Shown here one piece after another: positions 202 to 55,195 of a stretch of DNA of 64,000 bases (positions are counted from its first letter, which is position 1; each line of letters opens with the position of its first letter). The notes under the pieces were generated by a model. That model did not search any database. It was not told the DNA's origin and saw only the letters and a list, made by a program, of their open reading frames with translations. Source of the stretch: an uncultured Prevotellaceae bacterium (lineage in GTDB: Bacteria > Bacteroidota > Bacteroidia > Bacteroidales > Bacteroidaceae); contig OMXS01000010.1 of assembly GCA_900315095.1 (NCBI GenBank), positions 1-64,000 of the forward strand, in the 5' to 3' direction. A program made the position numbers and the translations under genes.

Positions 202-254
202 CGAAAAGTTTCCGAGACAAAAGTAGACAATTGAGAAATATCTTATTTCCCAAA

Positions 255-293
255 AATTATCTCTCATACTTCCAATAATTATCTCTCATACTT
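255..293. repeat. Two 17-bp direct repeats with a 22-bp period
   Basis: AATTATCTCTCATACTT occurs at 255-271 and again at 277-293 without mismatch, a start-to-start distance of 22 bp. A third, weaker copy (TATCTTATTTCC) precedes them. They lie about 55-100 bp upstream of the -7 element of the divergently placed Crp/Fnr gene, where an operator could sit. Two helical turns of spacing would place both copies on the same DNA face. Confidence 0.6.
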
Positions 294-472
294 ACAGAAT
301 TATTTCTGCGATTTTCGACAGTTAAACCTTAGGTTTTCCGAGGCATACCTCGACAGACTGGCGCATAAATAAAAAAGATTGTATAAAGCTATTAAAAGGT
401 CGAGCGTGTATTTCTTCTTTAACCGATTGATTACCAGCTCTTTTTGGAAGGATTCTGCCGCCTTGAGAAAGC

Positions 473-4771: not shown

Positions 4772-5704
4772 TTAAACGCTTAACATTTTCAACAAAGAAT
4801 TCATGCCGAACACGCGAGCAAAAAGCATCTTCAAACGCGTGAGAAACGGTATGTTGCCACCCATTACGCACCAACGTCCGGCATATCTGTCCATTCCGAG
4901 CAGGCGCACAGGCACCTTGTAACGCGAGGTGGCGGTAATCTGGATGTTCAGTACATGGGCATAATATTCTGCAACTAACGGCAGAGGCTGCCGCATCATC
5001 TCCGTGCGATGGGTCTCAAGATAGTTTATGTGTGCGTCAAGCAGGCTCTCGTGGTCGTCAGCGTTGCTGTTCTGGGTGATTCCTTTGGGGTTTTCCACAT
5101 AGTGATAACTGCCTTTTGAAGTAGTCACCACCCTGCCCCTCACATTCTGAAGCAGCAACGGAAGAGTGTGAACGTCCTCAAAATTTCTGCCCACAGGAAA
5201 GGATACGCCATTGAAGACCTCGCGTCTGTATATCTTGTTCCATGCGTATGTATGGGCGTATGCATGGCCTTTGAACCAATAATCATCAACATTTTGCCAC
5301 TCCGCATCATAGATTCCGAGTGAAACGGAACCACCTCCGGCAACGTGTTTCACAACTTTATACTCCAATATAGAGATGCCCTCGTCTGACATCATGCGCT
5401 CAACCAAAGGCTTCAACGTGCCTTCTTCTAGGTAATCGTCAGAGTCAACGAACGTCAGCAGTTCTCCTTTTGCGATGCCGATGCCAACGTTTCGGGCGAC
5501 ACTAAGTCCGCTGTTCTGCTGATGCACCACCTTGAAACGGCTGTCACTTGCCGCCCATCGCTCGCATATCTCACCGCACTTGTCAGGCGAGCCGTCATCC
5601 ACCATTATCACCTCGCAGTCCTCCAAGCCCTGCGACACAATGCTTTGCAGGCACTTCTCCAGCGTCTGTTCCACATTATATATAGGTATTATGATGCTCA
5701 ACAT
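4772..5704 (-). CDS. Family 2 glycosyltransferase
   Basis: This 310-residue cytoplasmic inverting glycosyltransferase has a GT-A fold. It opens with SIIIPIYN, has the nucleotide-binding acidic pair D36-D37-G38-S39 and the metal-binding D87-S-D-D90, and a later FEDVHT block that can supply the catalytic base. The sugar and acceptor cannot be read from sequence; surface glycan or LPS core synthesis is usual for such proteins. I start it at the ATG at 5702-5704; a longer frame begins with TTG inside the promoter. The gene stands alone and is convergent with dacB. Its promoter is identical over 23 bp to that of the MATE gene at 38.6 kb. Confidence 0.88.
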   Translation of the reverse strand: MLSIIIPIYNVEQTLEKCLQSIVSQGLEDCEVIMVDDGSPDKCGEICERWAASDSRFKVVHQQNSGLSVARNVGIGIAKGELLTFVDSDDYLEEGTLKPLVERMMSDEGISILEYKVVKHVAGGGSVSLGIYDAEWQNVDDYWFKGHAYAHTYAWNKIYRREVFNGVSFPVGRNFEDVHTLPLLLQNVRGRVVTTSKGSYHYVENPKGITQNSNADDHESLLDAHINYLETHRTEMMRQPLPLVAEYYAHVLNIQITATSRYKVPVRLLGMDRYAGRWCVMGGNIPFLTRLKMLFARVFGMNSLLKMLSV

Positions 5705-5714
5705 GATTATGGTG

Positions 5715-5722
5715 CAAAGATA
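5715..5722 (-). promoter_or_regulatory. TAnnTTTG promoter element for the glycosyltransferase
   Basis: The minus strand reads TATCTTTG ten bases before the ATG, again implying a very short leader. The surrounding 23 bases (5706-5728) recur exactly, in the same relation to the start codon, at 38585-38607. Confidence 0.65.
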
Positions 5723-5891
5723 GTGCAAACCGAACACAATACAAAATAAATCCTTTTATTTTTATTGTTCTTTCATCGCTACGTTAAGAAAGCGTCTCCT
5801 TCGTCGCCGAGCGGAGTGCAGCCTATCTTGACAAGCAGAGCGATGAAAAGATAATAAAAAACAACTAAACACCCAATACTAAGCATATTAA

Positions 5892-6084
5892 TATCTCATT
5901 CACCACATGTGAGAACGTCATTAATGCCTAATGAGCGTCTCACTTGTGCTTAGTGAGAGTGTCACTTGTGCCTAATGAGGGTGTCACTTGTGCTTAGTGA
6001 GGAGACAAAGTTAATAACTTTGTTCAACAATCTTATTAACTTTGCTACCCCACATGTATCTTCTTGAAGGCCAAGAAGTTACAA
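5892..6084. repeat. 22-bp-period tandem array with conserved tail and closing hairpin (copy 1)
   Basis: Five contiguous 22-bp units start at 5892, 5914, 5936, 5958 and 5980, each ending in ATGAG or GTGAG. Three contain TCACTTGTGC at an exact 22-bp spacing (CACTT at 5941, 5963, 5985). An 83-base tail (6002-6084) follows, with the near-palindrome AAAGTTAATAACTTT and a closing hairpin CTTCTTG/CAAGAAG (6060-6066/6072-6078, 5-base loop). By eye about 72 of 83 tail bases match the tail at 25395-25477, without gaps. The hairpin abuts the stop codon of the B3/B4-domain gene. No gene is seen in 5738-5891. Confidence 0.75.
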
Positions 6085-6756
6085 ATCGCACGTTTTGTAA
6101 GTATTTATTACGACATCTGAGGCACCTGCATATCGCTCGAGAAGTGACTTCACAAAGTCGGCGTTGGCACTTACGGTTTCGGTATTGCCATCGTAACCGT
6201 TGATGAGAACAAGCACATGAGTAGTGGTGATGTCTATCTTGGTGCGCTCATTGTCGCTTGTTGGCGTACCTACCCCACCCTTCTGGTCGCGATAGACGGG
6301 CATTCCCTCGATGTTGAGCATGCCTCGCCCGATGCCCTCGTATGGTTCGCCAGGCTCGCCGACACCAAGTGCGAGCGTGTCGCCCACGAACTTATCGGCA
6401 TCAAAACCACCGATGCTATAACCGTACTTCATGCTTGCGAGGTTGATAAGGTCGACGAGTGTGTCAATCTGGTAGAGTTCCTTGCCCTGAACAACACGGC
6501 GGATGAGAGCCTCAGCAGCAGGACGATAGCGCGAAGGGTCTTTGCCACAGGCACGATAAACACGACGAGTGGCTTCGATGGCGGCCATCTCTTTAATGCT
6601 GACCGTAGTGAAACGCGAGCGGTAATCCTCACAAAGCGCATTTATCTCGTCCCATAATTCAGGACAAAATGTGGTGTTCTGCACATGCGCCTCAACGGCT
6701 GCACCTACAAATTCCGGGCAAACTGCGCTTATCTTGTCGGTAACAATAATGTTCAT
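6079..6756 (-). CDS. B3/B4 tRNA-binding-domain protein
   Basis: The 225-residue product matches the stand-alone B3/B4 domain of phenylalanyl-tRNA synthetase beta chain (pattern VCPEFVGAAVEAHV.. near the start, then CGKDPSRYRPAAEALIRRV and LVDLINLASMKYGYSIGGFD). Free-standing B3/B4 proteins are thought to have editing-like or amino-acid-binding roles, but the substrate is not established. No signal peptide is visible, so it should be cytoplasmic. It lies 71 bases downstream of the mscS-like gene, separated by a small hairpin. The stop codon falls inside the end of the 22-bp repeat element. Confidence 0.75.
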   Translation of the reverse strand: MNIIVTDKISAVCPEFVGAAVEAHVQNTTFCPELWDEINALCEDYRSRFTTVSIKEMAAIEATRRVYRACGKDPSRYRPAAEALIRRVVQGKELYQIDTLVDLINLASMKYGYSIGGFDADKFVGDTLALGVGEPGEPYEGIGRGMLNIEGMPVYRDQKGGVGTPTSDNERTKIDITTTHVLVLINGYDGNTETVSANADFVKSLLERYAGASDVVINTYKTCDL

Positions 6757-24577: not shown

Positions 24578-25228
24578 TTATTTTATCTGTTTGAGAGCCA
24601 GCTTCACCACCTGTTCAACAGGCAGGTCGGGTTGCTCTTTCAGTATGCCCACAACAACCTTCGATGAGGGTGCTGGAGCAAAGCCAAGCATCGTGAGCGC
24701 GCCAACTGCCTCGTCGCGCACTTGGGTGTTGAAGGCTGGTTGTTGGGTGTTGGGAACAGAAGTGCCGCCCATGAGCCATTCGCCTTCGGGCAACTTGTCC
24801 TTCAGGTCCACGATAATGCGCTGGGCGGTGCGCAGGCCTATCCCCTTCACACCTTTCAGAATGCGCTCGTTGCCGGTAGCGATGACGTTGCAAAGTTCGG
24901 CAACCGAGAGTTCTGAGAGTATCATACGGGCGGTATTTGCACCCACACCTGAGACGGTGATGAGCAGCAAAAACATCTCGCGCTCCTTCTTTGTGGCAAA
25001 GCCGAAGAGCACATACGCATCCTCGCGAATGGCCTCATAAACCCAGAGACGAACGCTTGCGCCCCTGTCCGAGGGGAGCTGACCGGAGGTCTGAGGGGAG
25101 GATGCTTTGCCCTGAATGGCGCTATAAGTATTAAGTGATATGTTCAGTCCATAGCCCACTCCATTGGCTTCTATCACAGCAAAAGCAGGGGTGACATCAA
25201 CGAGTTCACCCTTTACATATTCAATCAT
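24578..25228 (-). CDS. ruvA: Holliday junction branch-migration protein RuvA
   Basis: The 216-residue protein binds four-way DNA junctions and loads RuvB. The N-terminal OB fold ([12 protein letters not shown]...[11 protein letters not shown]) is followed by the helix-hairpin-helix pair [16 protein letters not shown] and [20 protein letters not shown], and by the RuvB-contacting C-terminal domain. About 17 extra residues (41-58, [17 protein letters not shown]) interrupt domain I where homologues run straight from LQGK into a strand; they are encoded by a GC-rich palindrome. It is upstream of sprA, as is usual in the phylum. Confidence 0.93.
25059..25103. repeat. GC-rich palindromic insert inside ruvA
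   Basis: Within ruvA, CCCCT/AGGGG (25062-25066/25072-25076) and GACC-GGA-GGTC (25081-25091) form two small palindromes. They encode the residues that seem foreign to RuvA. The base composition resembles the GC-rich intergenic palindromes at 34.9-35.1 and 39.97-40.01 kb. Confidence 0.55.
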
Positions 25229-25327
25229 TTACGTTTTCCTTTTGTATATATACATTTTATTAAACGCACTTCACGCCCATTTTATTGCATTAGGGTGCAA
25301 TTTATAATAGGAAAAATGCCAAATGAA

Positions 25328-25477
25328 GATGCAAAAAGGCACAAGTGAGCATGCAAGAAGGCACAAGTGAGGGTGTCAGATGTATATAAGTGAGGAGACA
25401 AAGTTATTAACTTTGTTGAACAATGTTATTAACTTTGTTGCCCTACTTGTATCTTCTTGAACATCAAGAAGTTGCAA
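25328..25477. repeat. 22-bp-period tandem array with conserved tail and closing hairpin (copy 2)
   Basis: Units begin at 25328, 25350 and 25372 and end in AAGTGAG. The first two are 22 bp and share GGCACAAGTGAG; the third is 23 bp. The 83-base tail (25395-25477) matches that of copy 1 at 6002-6084. The tail itself keeps the 22-bp period, since GTTATTAACTTTGTTG occurs at 25403 and 25425. A closing hairpin CTTCTTG/CAAGAAG (25453-25459/25465-25471) has a 5-base loop. Here the element sits between the divergent ruvA and ddh genes; nothing else is seen in 25229-25656. Confidence 0.75.
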
Positions 25478-25656
25478 GATGGGTCGGAAAAGGGTGTTTT
25501 TAGCACTAAATTTACTTGATTATTAGGAGTGGAAAAACATGGATTTTGGTTTCAAGAAGATGTAACAAACAGGAAGAAAAAACGTCATTTTAATGACAAA
25601 AGAAAATATTTTAGCAAAAAAGTTGGCATTTTGTCGCTTATTTAAGCAGAATTGTT

Positions 25657-25707: not shown

Positions 25708-26607
25708 ATGAAGAAAATCAGAGCAGCCGTAGTAGGCTATGGTAACATCGGGCGATTTGCTCTCGAGGCTCTCGAGGCAGCACCCGACTTCGAGGTGGCA
25801 GGCATCGTGCGCCGTAACGGAGCAGAGAACAAGCCGGCAGAACTGGCACAGTATGACGTGGTGAAGGACATCCAGGAACTGAAGGATGTTGACGTGGCGA
25901 TTCTCGCAACGCCTACGCGCTCGTGCGAAGAGTATGCAAACAAGATTCTGCCTTTAGGCATCAACACCGTAGATTCGTTCGACATACACACGAACATTCG
26001 TGGTTACCGCGAGCGACTGATGGAACTGAACAAGAAGACAGGAACGGTGAGCGTGATAGCAGCAGGATGGGACCCAGGCTCGGACAGCGTTGTGCGCACC
26101 ATGATGCAAAGCCTTGCGCCAAAGGGACTTACATATACCAACTTCGGACCGGGAATGTCGATGGGCCACTCAGTATGCGTGCGCTCTAAGGCAGGCGTGA
26201 AGAACGCGCTCTCTATGACCATTCCTCTCGGCGAGGGTATTCACCGCCGCATGGTTTACGTTGAACTGGAGGACGGAGCGAAACTCGAGGATGTTACCGC
26301 CGCTATCAAGGCTGACCCTTACTTCGCTAATGACGAGACTCATGTCTTTGCCGTTGCTTCGGTAGATGACGTTCAGGACATGGGACACGGCGTCAACCTC
26401 GTGCGCAAGGGCGTGAGCGGCAAGACTCAAAACCAGCGTATAGAATTCAATATGAGCATCAACAACCCTGCTCTAACCGGTCAGGTGCTTGTGAATGTGG
26501 CTCGCGCTTCAATGCGCCAGCAGCCAGGATGCTACACCATGATAGAGATTCCTGTAATCGACCTGCTTCCGGGCGACCGCGCAGACCTTGTGGAGCATCT
26601 GGTTTAG
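25708..26607 (+). CDS. ddh: meso-Diaminopimelate dehydrogenase
   Basis: This 299-residue NADPH enzyme makes meso-diaminopimelate from tetrahydrodipicolinate in one step, feeding lysine and peptidoglycan synthesis. The Rossmann motif VVGYGNIG is at residues 8-15. Family blocks DSFDIHTNI, AAGWDPGSDSVVR, NFGPGMSMGHSVC and the C-terminal RQQPGCYTMIEIP are all present. Length is within the normal range of about 300-326. It is monocistronic, with its own promoter and a hairpin terminator shared with the convergent DUF4332 gene. Confidence 0.93.
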   Translation: MKKIRAAVVGYGNIGRFALEALEAAPDFEVAGIVRRNGAENKPAELAQYDVVKDIQELKDVDVAILATPTRSCEEYANKILPLGINTVDSFDIHTNIRGYRERLMELNKKTGTVSVIAAGWDPGSDSVVRTMMQSLAPKGLTYTNFGPGMSMGHSVCVRSKAGVKNALSMTIPLGEGIHRRMVYVELEDGAKLEDVTAAIKADPYFANDETHVFAVASVDDVQDMGHGVNLVRKGVSGKTQNQRIEFNMSINNPALTGQVLVNVARASMRQQPGCYTMIEIPVIDLLPGDRADLVEHLV

Positions 26608-26680
26608 TTAGGAGTTAGAAGTTAGGAGTTAGGAGTTCTTTTAGTCGGCTGACGCCTTGGTAAAAGCGGCAGAGCCGAGC
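26607..26680. repeat. AGTTAGGAGTT direct repeats and a GC-rich hairpin after ddh
   Basis: Three to four iterations of a TTAGGAGTTAG-like unit (26607-26640) are followed by an imperfect palindrome, CGGCT...AGCCG, at about 26645-26676. Similar short iterations of unrelated sequence flank other genes in this window, for example GTTCAAAGTTCAAA at 55165-55195. Confidence 0.4.
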
Positions 26681-35402: not shown

Positions 35403-36839
35403 TTAATGCTTGGTTTTTAGCGTGTTACGCACTTCTGATTGAACAACTCCTTTCTCCACTCTCGTCTCTAAAACGTCACCAGGTTTCAGTTGCGAGGCAT
35501 CACGCACAACGATGCCATTATGAGTGGTGATGCTATACCCGCGCTTCAACAAAAGCATAGGGTCGAGAGCCAAAGCTCGTTGCTCCAGCATCTGCAACCG
35601 ATGCTTCTGCTCCATCAGCAAACGACTGGCCAGCGGCAGCATATTGCCCTCCATGATGTCTATCTTATGACTGTTGTTGCTCACGCCTTGTTGCGCGGCG
35701 TTTATAATCTTCTGCAACACACGGTCCAGCCGGTGCTCCTCCTTCTCTCTCACAAGGGAGAAAAGCGACGGTATCTTCTCCGACGCCCGCATGAGTCTCA
35801 TCTGCTCCGTCTCCATTCGTTGCTTGGCGTTTGCAGCAAGCATGGTTTGGGCGTCTTGCAGGTAATCCCACACGCGCTTTAGGTTCTCTATCAGGAATGC
35901 CGCGGCTGCCGTGGGCGTCTTCACCCGTGTGTGACTTATCATGTCCAGAACACTCTCGTCGCGCTCATGACCGATGCCGGTGATTACGGGAAGCGGGAAC
36001 TGAGCCACATTCTCGGCCAGTGCCAGAGTGTCGAAGCCTGAAAGGTCGCTCGTGGCGCCTCCACCTCTTATTATTACAACGCAATCGAAGGCGGAGGGTT
36101 CTTTCTCCGCTTCGCTTTGAAAGCGCCCCTTCGGGTCGAGCGGAGGGTTGAAGGTTCTTTCTCCGCTTCGCTTTGAAAGCGCCCCTTCGGGTCGAGCGGA
36201 GGGTTGAGGGGAAGACATTGAGGCGTATATCTTGTTCAGCGCGTCGATGATGCTCTGCTCCACCCCCTCGCCTTGCATCGTGGCGGGAAACAGTTGTGTG
36301 ACGAACTTGAACCCGTAGGCATTGCTCTCCAGCTGGTTCACGAAGTCGCCATACCCAGCCGCGTTGGCGCTGCTTATCACCGCTATGTGCTGGCAGAAGA
36401 GCGGCATCTCTAGTTCCTTCTGCATGTCGAACACCCCCTCGCGTTTCAGCTGGTCGATGATGGCCTGTCTCTTGCGCGCCATATCGCCCAAGGTGTAGGT
36501 AGGGTCGATGTCGCTTATTATCCATGAGAAGCCATAGGCGGGGTGGAAATTGGCGCCGACGAGCATCAGCACCTTCATCCCCGTGTGCAACCGTTGCCCC
36601 GTAACCTTCTCGAACAGCGGTCCCACGGTGCTCCATGTGCTTGCCCAGCACTTGGCAGAGGCGCGCGCCACAGGAGTGTTCGTGCCCTCAGCCTTCTCTA
36701 TGAGGTCGATGTAGCAATGTCCGCGCACCTCACGGAGTTCCGAAATCTCTGCCTCCACCCAGTATTCTCGGGGCATCCCCACCTCGATTACCTCGGCGAG
36801 CAGCTGGTTCAGTTCAAGGAGCGATAGCGTCTGTTTCAT
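35403..36839 (-). CDS. xseA: Exodeoxyribonuclease VII large subunit
   Basis: The 478-residue nuclease subunit has the N-terminal OB fold (SLLELNQLLAEVIE, WVEAEISELREVRGHCYIDL), the central domain with VVIIRGGGATSDLSGFD, PVITGIGHERDESVLD and RVKTPTAAAAFL, and a C-terminal coiled region ending in KRGYSITTHNG. It degrades single-stranded DNA in mismatch and damage repair. About 42 residues between IYAS and FDCVV (roughly 208-250) are not part of the family and come from two tandem copies of a 56-bp palindromic element. It overlaps the protease gene by 26 bases. Confidence 0.93.
   Translation of the reverse strand: MKQTLSLLELNQLLAEVIEVGMPREYWVEAEISELREVRGHCYIDLIEKAEGTNTPVARASAKCWASTWSTVGPLFEKVTGQRLHTGMKVLMLVGANFHPAYGFSWIISDIDPTYTLGDMARKRQAIIDQLKREGVFDMQKELEMPLFCQHIAVISSANAAGYGDFVNQLESNAYGFKFVTQLFPATMQGEGVEQSIIDALNKIYASMSSPQPSARPEGALSKRSGERTFNPPLDPKGRFQSEAEKEPSAFDCVVIIRGGGATSDLSGFDTLALAENVAQFPLPVITGIGHERDESVLDMISHTRVKTPTAAAAFLIENLKRVWDYLQDAQTMLAANAKQRMETEQMRLMRASEKIPSLFSLVREKEEHRLDRVLQKIINAAQQGVSNNSHKIDIMEGNMLPLASRLLMEQKHRLQMLEQRALALDPMLLLKRGYSITTHNGIVVRDASQLKPGDVLETRVEKGVVQSEVRNTLKTKH
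36097..36208. repeat. Tandem 56-bp palindromic element inside xseA
   Basis: Two copies (36097-36152 and 36153-36208) are identical over nearly their whole length, sharing CTCCGCTTCGCTTTGAAAGC and GGGTCGAGCGGAGGG. Because 56 is not a multiple of three, xseA reads them in two different frames (PSARPEGALSKRSGER then PPLDPKGRFQSEAEKE), both free of stops. All three sense frames of a copy are open. Confidence 0.85.
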
Positions 36840-42820: not shown

Positions 42821-43998
42821 AAAAAATATTATTACTAGGCTCAGGCGAACTGGGCAAGGAATTTGTGATTGCGGCAAAACGCGCAGGACAGTATGTCATT
42901 GCATGCGACCGCTATGAGGGTGCTCCCGCTATGCAGGTGGCAGACGAGCGCGAGGTGTTCTCAATGCTCGACGGCGACGCCCTGGAGGCTGTGGTGCGCA
43001 AACACAAGCCAGACATCATCGTGCCGGAGATTGAGGCTATACGCACCGAACGTCTTTTCGACTTCGAGAAGGAGGGAGTGCAGGTGGTGCCCTCTGCTCG
43101 TGCGGTGAACTTCACCATGAACCGCCGCGCAATACGCGACCTCGCTTCAAAGGAACTGGGACTGCGCACGGCAAAATATTTCTATGCTAAGACCTTTGAG
43201 GAGTTCAAGAAGGCAGCCGACGAGATAGGATTCCCATGCGTGGTGAAGCCTCTGATGTCATCGTCTGGCCACGGACAGAGTTACGTTCATAACGACGACG
43301 AACTGGAGCAGGCTTTCCGCGAGGCTATGGAAGGCAGCCGCGGCGATGTCAAGGAGGTGATTATCGAGGAGTTCATTGACTTCGAGTCGGAGTTCACTCT
43401 GCTTACGGTGACTCAGAAGAACGCCCCCACCATCTTCTGCCCGCCCATCGGACATGTTCAGAAAGGTGGCGACTATCGTGAGTCGTGGCAACCATACAAG
43501 ATTAGCGACGAGGCTCTGAAGCAGGCGCAACACATGGCCGACGAGGTGACACGCGCCCTTACAGGTTACGGCATCTGGGGAGTGGAGTTCTTCCTTACAC
43601 GACAGGGCGAGGTGATATTCTCTGAACTGTCTCCACGTCCGCACGACACGGGTATGGTGACACTGGGGCACACCACTAACCTCTCGGAGTTTGAACTGCA
43701 TTTCCGCGCCGTGATGGGACTTCCCATCGCAGGCATTCACCTGGAACATGCTGGCGCTTCTGCCGTAATCCTCTCGCCAGAGGACAAGGTGGGCCAGCTG
43801 GACTATAACTTCGAGGATGCTCTTAAAGAAGACCGCACCCGCATCCGCATCTTCGGAAAGCCCGAGGCACACTTCGGCCGCCGCATGGGAGTGGTATTGT
43901 GCTATGGTGATATTGACGAAGACACCACAGCACTTCGCGACAAGGCAAAGCGCCTGGCAAAGACCGTGCTAGGCACAGAACCATACATGAAGAAATGA
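42817..43998 (+). CDS. purT: Formate-dependent phosphoribosylglycinamide formyltransferase
   Basis: The 393-residue ATP-grasp enzyme makes formyl-GAR from formate, ATP and GAR in purine synthesis. It opens with [13 protein letters not shown] and has the ATP-grasp blocks [34 protein letters not shown] and [13 protein letters not shown]. Length matches E. coli PurT (392). It lies inside a dTDP-sugar gene cluster with four-base overlaps on both sides, which looks like a housekeeping gene captured by the operon rather than a pathway link. Confidence 0.94.
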
Positions 43999-55164: not shown

Positions 55165-55195
55165 AAGTTCAAAGTTCAAAAATCAAAGTTCAAGG
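55165..55195. repeat. GTTCAAAGTTCAAA-type short repeats between lutB and lutC
   Basis: Three or four iterations of an AAGTTCAAA unit fill the 51-base gap. This style of repeat is frequent between genes in Bacteroidota; no function is known. Confidence 0.45.

What the first reader, a model, noticed from the sequence alone, without database searches (positions are those of the whole stretch)
5892..6084. Intergenic repeat element with exact 22-bp period and conserved 83-base tail, present at two loci 19 kb apart
Seen directly: five contiguous 22-bp units (5892-6001) ending in RTGAG, then a tail matching 25395-25477 without gaps (about 72 of 83 bases by eye). At 25.3 kb the 22-bp period continues inside the tail (GTTATTAACTTTGTTG at 25403 and 25425). 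Both end in CTTCTTG/CAAGAAG with a 5-base loop, although the loop bases differ. Different neighbours and variable unit number suggest a dispersed element, or an array of paired protein-binding sites two helical turns apart. I know of no described family with this layout.
Basis: seen in the sequence. Interest (0 to 1): 0.72.

Follow-up and report, generated by a model that had tools for sequence, protein, structure and literature searches.

The report
Ultra-conserved 22-bp repeat arrays in Prevotella
The two repeats are copies of a non-coding element found dozens of times between genes in this bacterium and its closest relatives, whose 17-letter core sites have stayed almost unchanged while the DNA around them drifted, as if a still unknown protein binds them; many other Prevotella species carry arrays of the same 22-letter pitch with quite different letters.

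Summary
In detail: five 22-bp units at 5892-6001, and a tail matching 25395-25477 at 72 of 83 bases. Both are copies of a dispersed intergenic element. Its core is 2-4 tandem 17-bp quasi-palindromes, CWAWSTTAWTAASWTWG, at an exact 22-bp pitch. That 17-mer occurs 108 times in this genome, 152 and 96 times in its two nearest sampled relatives, and 0-3 times in the other 396 of 399 genomes of the genus. Element positions are shared between species. Core units depart from the template at about 0.3-0.5% of bases, while the adjoining cap averages 71% identity between orthologues. Pairing across the cap hairpin shows no clear covariation; 95 of 97 own core units keep a canonical half. I read it as an operator array for an unidentified DNA-binding protein, not an RNA structure. 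In samples of 18 other Prevotella genomes, unrelated sequences repeat at the same pitch: 37 arrays at lag 22 against at most 8 at any lag other than its harmonic 44. The closest described repeats are PINSR and BrickBuilt. Binding protein and function are untested.

The parts
5852..6001 (+). B-side array, 22-bp pitch (five clear units 5892-6001, half-sites such as TCACTTG and CTAATGA with 3- and 5-bp spacers)
6006..6022 (.). core A unit 1, CAAAGTTAATAACTTTG (both halves canonical)
6028..6044 (.). core A unit 2, CAATCTTATTAACTTTG (one canonical, one variant half)
6045..6094 (+). 50-nt cap module with CTTCTTG-AAGGC-CAAGAAG at 6060-6078; overlaps the stop codon of the minus-strand gene 6079-6756
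25319..25398 (+). B-side array of the second copy (22-bp pitch)
25399..25415 (.). core A unit 1 of the second copy, CAAAGTTATTAACTTTG
25421..25437 (.). core A unit 2 of the second copy, CAATGTTATTAACTTTG
25438..25487 (+). cap module of the second copy with CTTCTTG-AACAT-CAAGAAG at 25453-25471
6079..6756 (-). neighbour: B3/4-domain protein gene, stop codon inside the cap module
4772..5737 (-). neighbour: family 2 glycosyltransferase gene
24578..25228 (-). neighbour of copy 2: ruvA-like gene
25708..26607 (+). neighbour of copy 2: diaminopimelate dehydrogenase-like gene

Best explanation
The element is a dispersed non-coding repeat whose working part is a tandem array of DNA operator sites. Shown: 17-bp quasi-palindromes repeat at exactly 22 bp (17 + 5-bp spacer, about two helical turns), so inverted half-sites alternate every 11 bp; arrays gain and lose whole units; element positions are shared between sister species. 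Inferred: a sequence-specific dimeric DNA-binding protein occupies each 17-mer, neighbouring dimers sit on nearly the same face of the helix and bind cooperatively, and each site needs one strong (canonical) half while the other may be a weaker variant. Also inferred: the element persists and grows in the permissive space behind stop codons and is kept out of promoters. What the bound array does for the cell (chromosome organisation, transcription roadblock, or nothing but self-maintenance) is not shown. My guess is a nucleoid or transcription-boundary role.
For: Strong constraint on the core only. Own genome: 92 of 97 core units fit the template exactly and 5 differ at one position (0.3% per bp); sister genomes: 156 of 167 fit (0.53% per bp). 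Orthologous cap modules average 71% identity (21 pairs), and the longer alignments of own and related loci 77-97%. Cores show common descent: orthologous cores are on average more alike than shuffled pairs (28 pairs, 0 of 5000 permutations), which argues against recent re-copying as the sole cause of uniformity. Changes in half-sites are almost only A-T and G-C swaps. Half-sites are not independent: own units with both/one/no canonical half are 25/70/2, against 37/46/14 in shuffles (0 of 4000 as extreme). Pairing across the cap dyad is not clearly maintained (Watson-Crick pairs 833 against 813 +/- 11 shuffled; G-T 100 against 106). B-only arrays keep the 22-bp pitch although 14 of 32 strands do not fold below z -2. 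lambda operators also are 17 bp with a consensus and a non-consensus half (passages of PMC2194778).
Against: No cognate protein was found or sought. The sites lie mostly behind stop codons, not at promoters. Core elements fold strongly as RNA (mean z -5.75, 72 strands), although inverted repeats do so by construction; B-only strands fold somewhat better than controls (18 of 32 against 19 of 60 below z -2). The core's common descent is only an average: 5 of 28 arrays match their own orthologue best, 14 of 28 rank it first or second, and a few rank it near last, so concerted evolution by an unknown copying process remains possible. Units were recognised with the same W/S template that is then found conserved (seed 16 of 17, neighbours 12 of 17), which favours agreement. 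The cap's Watson-Crick excess (z about 1.9) is weak but not zero. The half-site statistic on sister arrays is biased, because 29 of them were fetched by a pattern with one fully canonical unit; the own-genome figure is not affected by that.
Confidence: 0.45

Rival explanations
1. A BIME/REP-like structural element: the inverted repeats act in RNA or supercoiled DNA as hairpins behind stop codons, stabilising mRNA 3' ends, ending transcription or separating convergent genes. Sequence may then change freely while the geometry stays.
For: 26 of 62 neighbouring stop codons lie within 16 bp of (or overlap) the element, against 4 of 43 start codons; only 5 of 51 elements are between divergent genes. 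Core elements fold well below shuffles. Different sequences with the same geometry occupy orthologous places.
Against: Cap pairing hardly covaries and G-U is not favoured over A-C. Fully palindromic core units are rarer than expected, 25 against 37. 14 of 32 B-only strands do not fold below z -2. A structure alone would not hold 17 letters at 0.3-0.5% change.
Confidence: 0.25
2. A selfish minisatellite-bearing repeat (MITE-like) that spread in the clade ancestor by an unknown transposase and now persists without host function; uniform cores reflect gene conversion or unit copying.
For: Clade-limited amplification: 96-152 core sites in the three close species, 0 in the next closest sampled. Unit gain and loss in steps of 22 bp. 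Some orthologous sites lack it, for example L004 and L066 in G044 and L005, L030 and L068 in G060. Several orthologous cores are no more alike than unrelated ones.
Against: No terminal inverted repeats or target duplications were seen on reading (not searched systematically). The only Y1-transposase-like gene of the genome is preceded by a different palindrome, with no core 17-mer in its 3.3-kb locus. No match in phage, plasmid or viral collections. Cap modules of the same copies are not homogenised, so conversion would have to stop at the core.
Confidence: 0.2
3. Operator array of an ordinary transcription regulator for the neighbouring genes (a regulon).
For: Short, conserved quasi-palindromic sites with one good half; some copies lie upstream of genes (25399-25437 between ruvA and the dehydrogenase gene).
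Against: Copies are nearer to stop than to start codons on the whole. The four genes examined around the two window copies belong to unrelated functions (glycosyltransferase, B3/4 domain, RuvA, diaminopimelate dehydrogenase); neighbours of other copies were not annotated.
Confidence: 0.05

Closest known systems
PINSR, the 188-bp P. intermedia/nigrescens group-specific repeat (PMC4755523; outline with abstract, sections 2.3 and 3.4 read)
   Same: Prevotella, intergenic, 177 and 184 copies in two strains, limited to one clade, no terminal inverted repeats, about three quarters of positions shared between strains, function unknown
   Different: Described as one 188-bp sequence; no 22-bp unit structure is mentioned in the section read; its sequence (a figure) was not available, so whether it hides a 22-bp array could not be tested
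BrickBuilt MITE of Porphyromonas gingivalis (PMC4596501; abstract, sections 5 and 8 and part 1 of section 7 read)
   Same: Dispersed intergenic element with short tandem units (23 nt, 1 to 22.8 copies), separate leader and tail modules, limited to few species
   Different: 23-nt units, terminal inverted repeats like IS5-family elements, 19 copies; here 22 bp, no recognised terminal repeats, an almost invariant 17-bp core and alternating inverted half-sites
REP/BIME elements with RAYT transposases (PMC3733652, search listing and passages; the rest recalled)
   Same: Small palindromes in many copies, often in inverted groups, species-specific sequence, possible roles at transcript ends
   Different: No GTAG or CGTC tag seen here; fixed 22-bp pitch; the genome's single Y1-transposase gene goes with a different GTAG-containing palindrome
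lambda-type tandem operators (PMC2194778 passages; tandem arrangement and spacing recalled)
   Same: 17-bp quasi-palindromes with one consensus and one non-consensus half
   Different: A few phage promoters, not dozens of chromosomal 3' intergenic sites; no repressor gene linked

Membership tests
REP/BIME (GTAG REPs with RAYT) | terminal GTAG (or CGTC) tag on each palindrome | tested here: not met
   no such end tag in the parsed core units or the cap column counts, by reading
REP/BIME (GTAG REPs with RAYT) | cognate RAYT gene flanked by the repeat | tested here: not met
   one PF01797 match in the genome; its locus L090 has no core 17-mer and no strict B unit, but an inverted pair of GTAGGGGC palindromes just before the gene
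BrickBuilt MITE | 23-nt tandem units | tested here: not met
   TRF gives 22 at the window arrays and most often in the own-genome sample, 15 arrays at 22 against 3 at 23; the core parser imposed 22
BrickBuilt MITE | IS5-like terminal inverted repeats GAGACC..GGTCTC | tested here: inconclusive
   not seen at the ends of the printed copies on reading; no systematic search was run
PINSR | 188-bp consensus sequence | not testable with these tools
   sequence is in a figure that is not held
Known RNA family (Rfam) | match to a curated covariance model | tested here: not met
   no match at gathering score in the whole window
RNA structural element | covariation that keeps base pairs | tested here: not met
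   cap dyad, 69 distinct copies: Watson-Crick 833 against 813 +/- 11 shuffled; own core units: 25 fully canonical against 37 expected
Protein operator array | a protein that binds the sites | not testable with these tools
   no binding data; indirect support from conservation only

The most novel reading that the evidence does not exclude
Prevotella species share a system in which the 22-bp pitch of quasi-palindromic intergenic arrays is constant while the letters are reinvented in each lineage, sometimes at the same orthologous spot. That would imply a conserved machinery (a rapidly re-specifying family of DNA-binding or array-building proteins) that reads geometry and co-evolves with its sites, as rapidly evolving centromere-like repeats or REP/RAYT pairs do, but at fixed two-turn spacing.
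Probability: 0.3. Interest if true: 0.85.

Novelty: new variant of a known kind. Interest (0 to 1): 0.7.

Why it matters
A hundred or more nearly invariant 17-bp sites that appear in one small clade and practically nowhere else in the genus sample are a ready-made assay for an unknown DNA-binding protein. If the 22-bp rule across Prevotella holds, intergenic DNA of a major gut and rumen genus is shaped by a geometry-keeping process that annotation ignores. It also gives a direct test between structural and protein-binding explanations for bacterial intergenic palindromes.

Tried and rejected
RNA family: no Rfam match. RNA or cruciform structure as the conserved trait: weakened by the lack of clear covariation in the cap. 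REP/RAYT: the single Y1-transposase gene goes with another palindrome. Mobile carrier: no match in phages or plasmids, no viral contig with an exact match to a one-and-a-half-unit pattern. Regulon of the neighbours: the gene functions around the window copies are unrelated. Separation of dyads by 11 bp in most arrays was not used as evidence, because it follows from period 22 plus one dyad. The first lag-segment count was too strict and was repeated with looser settings.

Results against a universal 22-bp rule. In the unfiltered 6-mer census of 15 Prevotella samples lag 22 leads only narrowly (421; lag 21, 390; lag 14, 378), because heptad repeats (lags 14, 21, 28, 35, 42) are common; one search filtered these out. 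6 of 18 other Prevotella samples, and the G060 sample, show no lag-22 array; samples were small (two to eight stretches of mostly 20 kb, some shorter; one for G010). TRF is clear for G000 and G016 but not for G024 (2 arrays at 22, one at 44, 3 at 16). Only 16 of 52 Prevotella arrays have a dyad at p <= 0.05 (about 2.6 expected). In the random samples the lag-22 segments are not concentrated at stop codons: within 16 bp, 2 of 17 stop ends in the clade genomes and 4 of 41 in other Prevotella; the strong figure is for 54 BLAST-found copies with their full extents.

Rows dropped: six overlapping duplicate loci (L018-L020, L024, L027, L028); repeat fetches L091-L120; L086 and L087 (extents over 600 bp); 14 of 84 caps (score under 14 or another length); 4 of 25 orthologous cap pairs; very short sampled contigs (G012, G017, G020, and L213, L214 of G039).

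Full report
OBSERVATION. Units 5892, 5914, 5936, 5958 and 5980 are 22 bp each and end in RTGAG; 6002-6084 matches 25395-25477 at 72 of 83 bases; the CTTCTTG/CAAGAAG hairpins are at 6060-6078 and 25453-25471. TRF finds period 22 at these places. No Rfam family matches the window.

THE ELEMENT IN ITS OWN GENOME. The window is contig 24 of a 3.24-Mb, 58-contig genome whose nearest named relatives are Prevotella assemblies. BLAST with the element gives dozens of places, and with the B side alone a further set. Reading the copies gives one plan. A central core of A units, each a 17-bp quasi-palindrome with a 5-bp spacer (mostly TTSAA type), makes a 22-bp pitch. On one side lie B units of the same pitch (half-sites starting TCA). 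On the other side lies a 50-nt cap module; 84 flanks were extracted without gaps and 70 (69 distinct) from four assemblies are recognisably this module. Core number varies: 36 own arrays have 2, 3 or 4 units (13, 21 and 2 arrays), while 21 of 29 arrays fetched by pattern from other genomes have 4. Some arrays have B units only, or another palindrome (GTGATTAG..CTAATCAC) in the middle.

WHERE IT SITS. For 54 own loci, with genes called by a codon-usage script rather than a gene finder, 26 of 62 neighbouring stop codons lie within 16 bp of the element or overlap it, against 4 of 43 start codons; of 51 loci with both neighbours called, 32 are tandem, 14 convergent and 5 divergent. No null model of intergenic space was run. 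The first window copy overlaps the stop codon of the minus-strand gene at 6079. The second lies between divergent genes, ruvA and a diaminopimelate dehydrogenase gene, so the preference is not a rule.

WHO HAS IT. The degenerate 17-mer CWAWSTTAWTAASWTWG occurs 108 times in this genome (G000), 152 in G044, 96 in G060, 3 in the incomplete G314 and once each in 6 others, of 399 genomes of the genus (a sample, not all); the control pattern never exceeds 1. G044 and G060 are also the closest sampled relatives by the dehydrogenase protein (99% and 97%); the next, G356 and G331 at 93%, have no site. The G314 copy is at the end of a 4-kb contig that is 94% identical to UBA4330 DNA over 1.1 kb although the assembly's dehydrogenase is much more distant, so it is probably misbinned or transferred. 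B arrays follow the same clade: 3 of 10 genomes tested. No match was found in phages or plasmids, and no viral contig matches a one-and-a-half-unit pattern exactly.

INHERITANCE AND CONSTRAINT. At orthologous places the same element is found in sister genomes, with unit numbers that differ; one locus at 97% identity differs by exactly one 22-bp unit. 20 own loci (18 with core, 2 B-only; chosen because no orthologue was yet at hand) were sought in G044 and G060. 15 could be read in G044: 9 have core units, 4 have a different 22-bp array, 2 have neither. Ten could be read in G060: 4 have core units, 1 a different 22-bp array, 5 no core unit. Orthologous cores resemble each other more than non-orthologous ones on average (28 pairs, 0 of 5000 permutations), but unevenly: 5 arrays match their own orthologue best, 14 rank it first or second, and a few rank it near last. 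So positions and part of the core sequence are inherited, with much reshuffling of units. Yet 92 of 97 own and 156 of 167 sister units fit the template exactly, while orthologous caps average 71% identity (21 of 25 pairs usable; non-orthologous 60%). Variation inside the core is almost wholly A-T or G-C swaps at fixed positions; the search template favours such units, though it would have admitted up to five departures next to a good unit. Units with no canonical half are avoided (own 2 of 97, 14 expected), and units with two are also fewer than expected (25 against 37).

STRUCTURE OR SITE? Core elements fold far better than shuffles (mean z -5.75, 72 strands), B-only arrays less so (-2.4, 32), random non-coding DNA -1.8 (60), arrays of other species -2.7 (40). 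The cap offers the cleanest test: over 20 column pairs of 69 distinct copies, Watson-Crick pairs number 833 against 813 +/- 11 when partners are shuffled; G-T pairs 100 against 106; A-C 126 against 126. Pairing is therefore at best weakly maintained. Together with the near-frozen 17-mer and the one-good-half rule, this points to recognition of half-sites by a protein. lambda operators, 17 bp with a consensus and a non-consensus half (passages of PMC2194778), are a working analogy, not a claim of membership.

THE WIDER PATTERN. At three of the loci read, G044 carries arrays of AGTACGTGACGTTCGGACTGGC-type units instead (22 bp); that family has about 20 places in G044, none in this genome and one weak match in G060. 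At one further locus each, G044 carries a TAAAATAG..CTATTTTG array and G060 a TTACCAG..CTGGTAA array, again at 22 bp. Samples of 18 other Prevotella genomes (419 non-coding segments, 193 kb) hold 37 arrays at lag 22 and 21 at its harmonic 44, at most 8 at any other lag from 15 to 45, and 2 in shuffled sequence over all lags; arrays occur in 12 of the 18. The three clade genomes give 15 (14 of them in G000, none in G060) against at most 4, and five genomes of other families (58 kb) give 1. Without the filter against short-period repeats the lead of lag 22 is narrow (421 against 390 at lag 21). TRF agrees for G000 (15 arrays at 22; at most 4 at any other period from 16 up) and G016 (6; at most 2), not clearly for G024. 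Dyad symmetry beyond column-permuted controls (p <= 0.05) holds for 16 of 52 Prevotella arrays, so symmetry is common but not universal, and in these samples stop-codon adjacency is not evident. Arrays within one species often share sequence, so counts are not independent events.

COMPARISON. PINSR (section 3.4 of PMC4755523) is the nearest described Prevotella repeat found. BrickBuilt (PMC4596501) is the nearest in unit layout but has 23-nt units and IS5-like ends. REP/BIME membership fails on tag and transposase. Searches of the held library for a 22-bp Prevotella or Bacteroidales array listed nothing that matches; most subscription papers are not in that library.

VERDICT. A real, dispersed, clade-limited element with an unusually constrained 17-bp core at 22-bp pitch, best read as an operator array for an unidentified protein (0.45), and one instance of what looks like a widespread Prevotella habit of 22-bp arrays with changing letters.

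Noticed in passing
window 250-307: Another 22-bp tandem array (2.7 copies, CCAAAAATTATCTCTCATACTT) not like the core or B units by eye, near a probable minus-strand gene start.
   Followed up: no
L147, L137, L139 (G044): A second dispersed 22-bp family (AGTACGTG / AGTCCGAA half-sites), about 20 places in G044 and none in the window's genome, at places where this genome has core or B arrays.
   Followed up: partly
L144 (G060), orthologue of L010: Array TTACCAG-ACA-CTGGTAA plus 5-bp spacer at 22 bp close behind a gene; a similar TGGGTAA..TTACCCA array is in G024 (L190 944-1039).
   Followed up: partly
L090 1240-1360 (G000:C26, upstream of 61492): The only Y1-transposase (RAYT-like) gene is preceded by an inverted pair of GTAGGGGCG palindromes, probably its own REP; similar palindromes appear beside elements in G044 (L052, L141).
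   Followed up: no
window 26606-26637, 55165-55193, and samples of several Prevotella: Heptad tandem repeats (AGTTAGG, AAGTTCA and others) are a common separate class, giving lags 14, 21, 28, 35 and 42 in non-coding DNA.
   Followed up: no
window 36097-36207: A perfect 56-bp tandem duplication inside the 478-aa open reading frame 35403-36839.
   Followed up: no
L001/L031 and L059/L069 cores: The core segment between two dyads looks inverted in one species relative to the other, suggesting flips of short segments inside the palindromic array (read by eye).
   Followed up: partly
L068 2410-2610 (G000:C19, around 43010-43210): A long B-only array of about eight 22-bp units between two convergent genes, filling the space from 10 bp behind one called stop codon to 8 bp from the next.
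   Followed up: no
L049 (G314 contig end): A 4-kb contig of a distant assembly carries the array and 1.1 kb that is 94% identical to UBA4330: likely misbinning or a transfer.
   Followed up: partly
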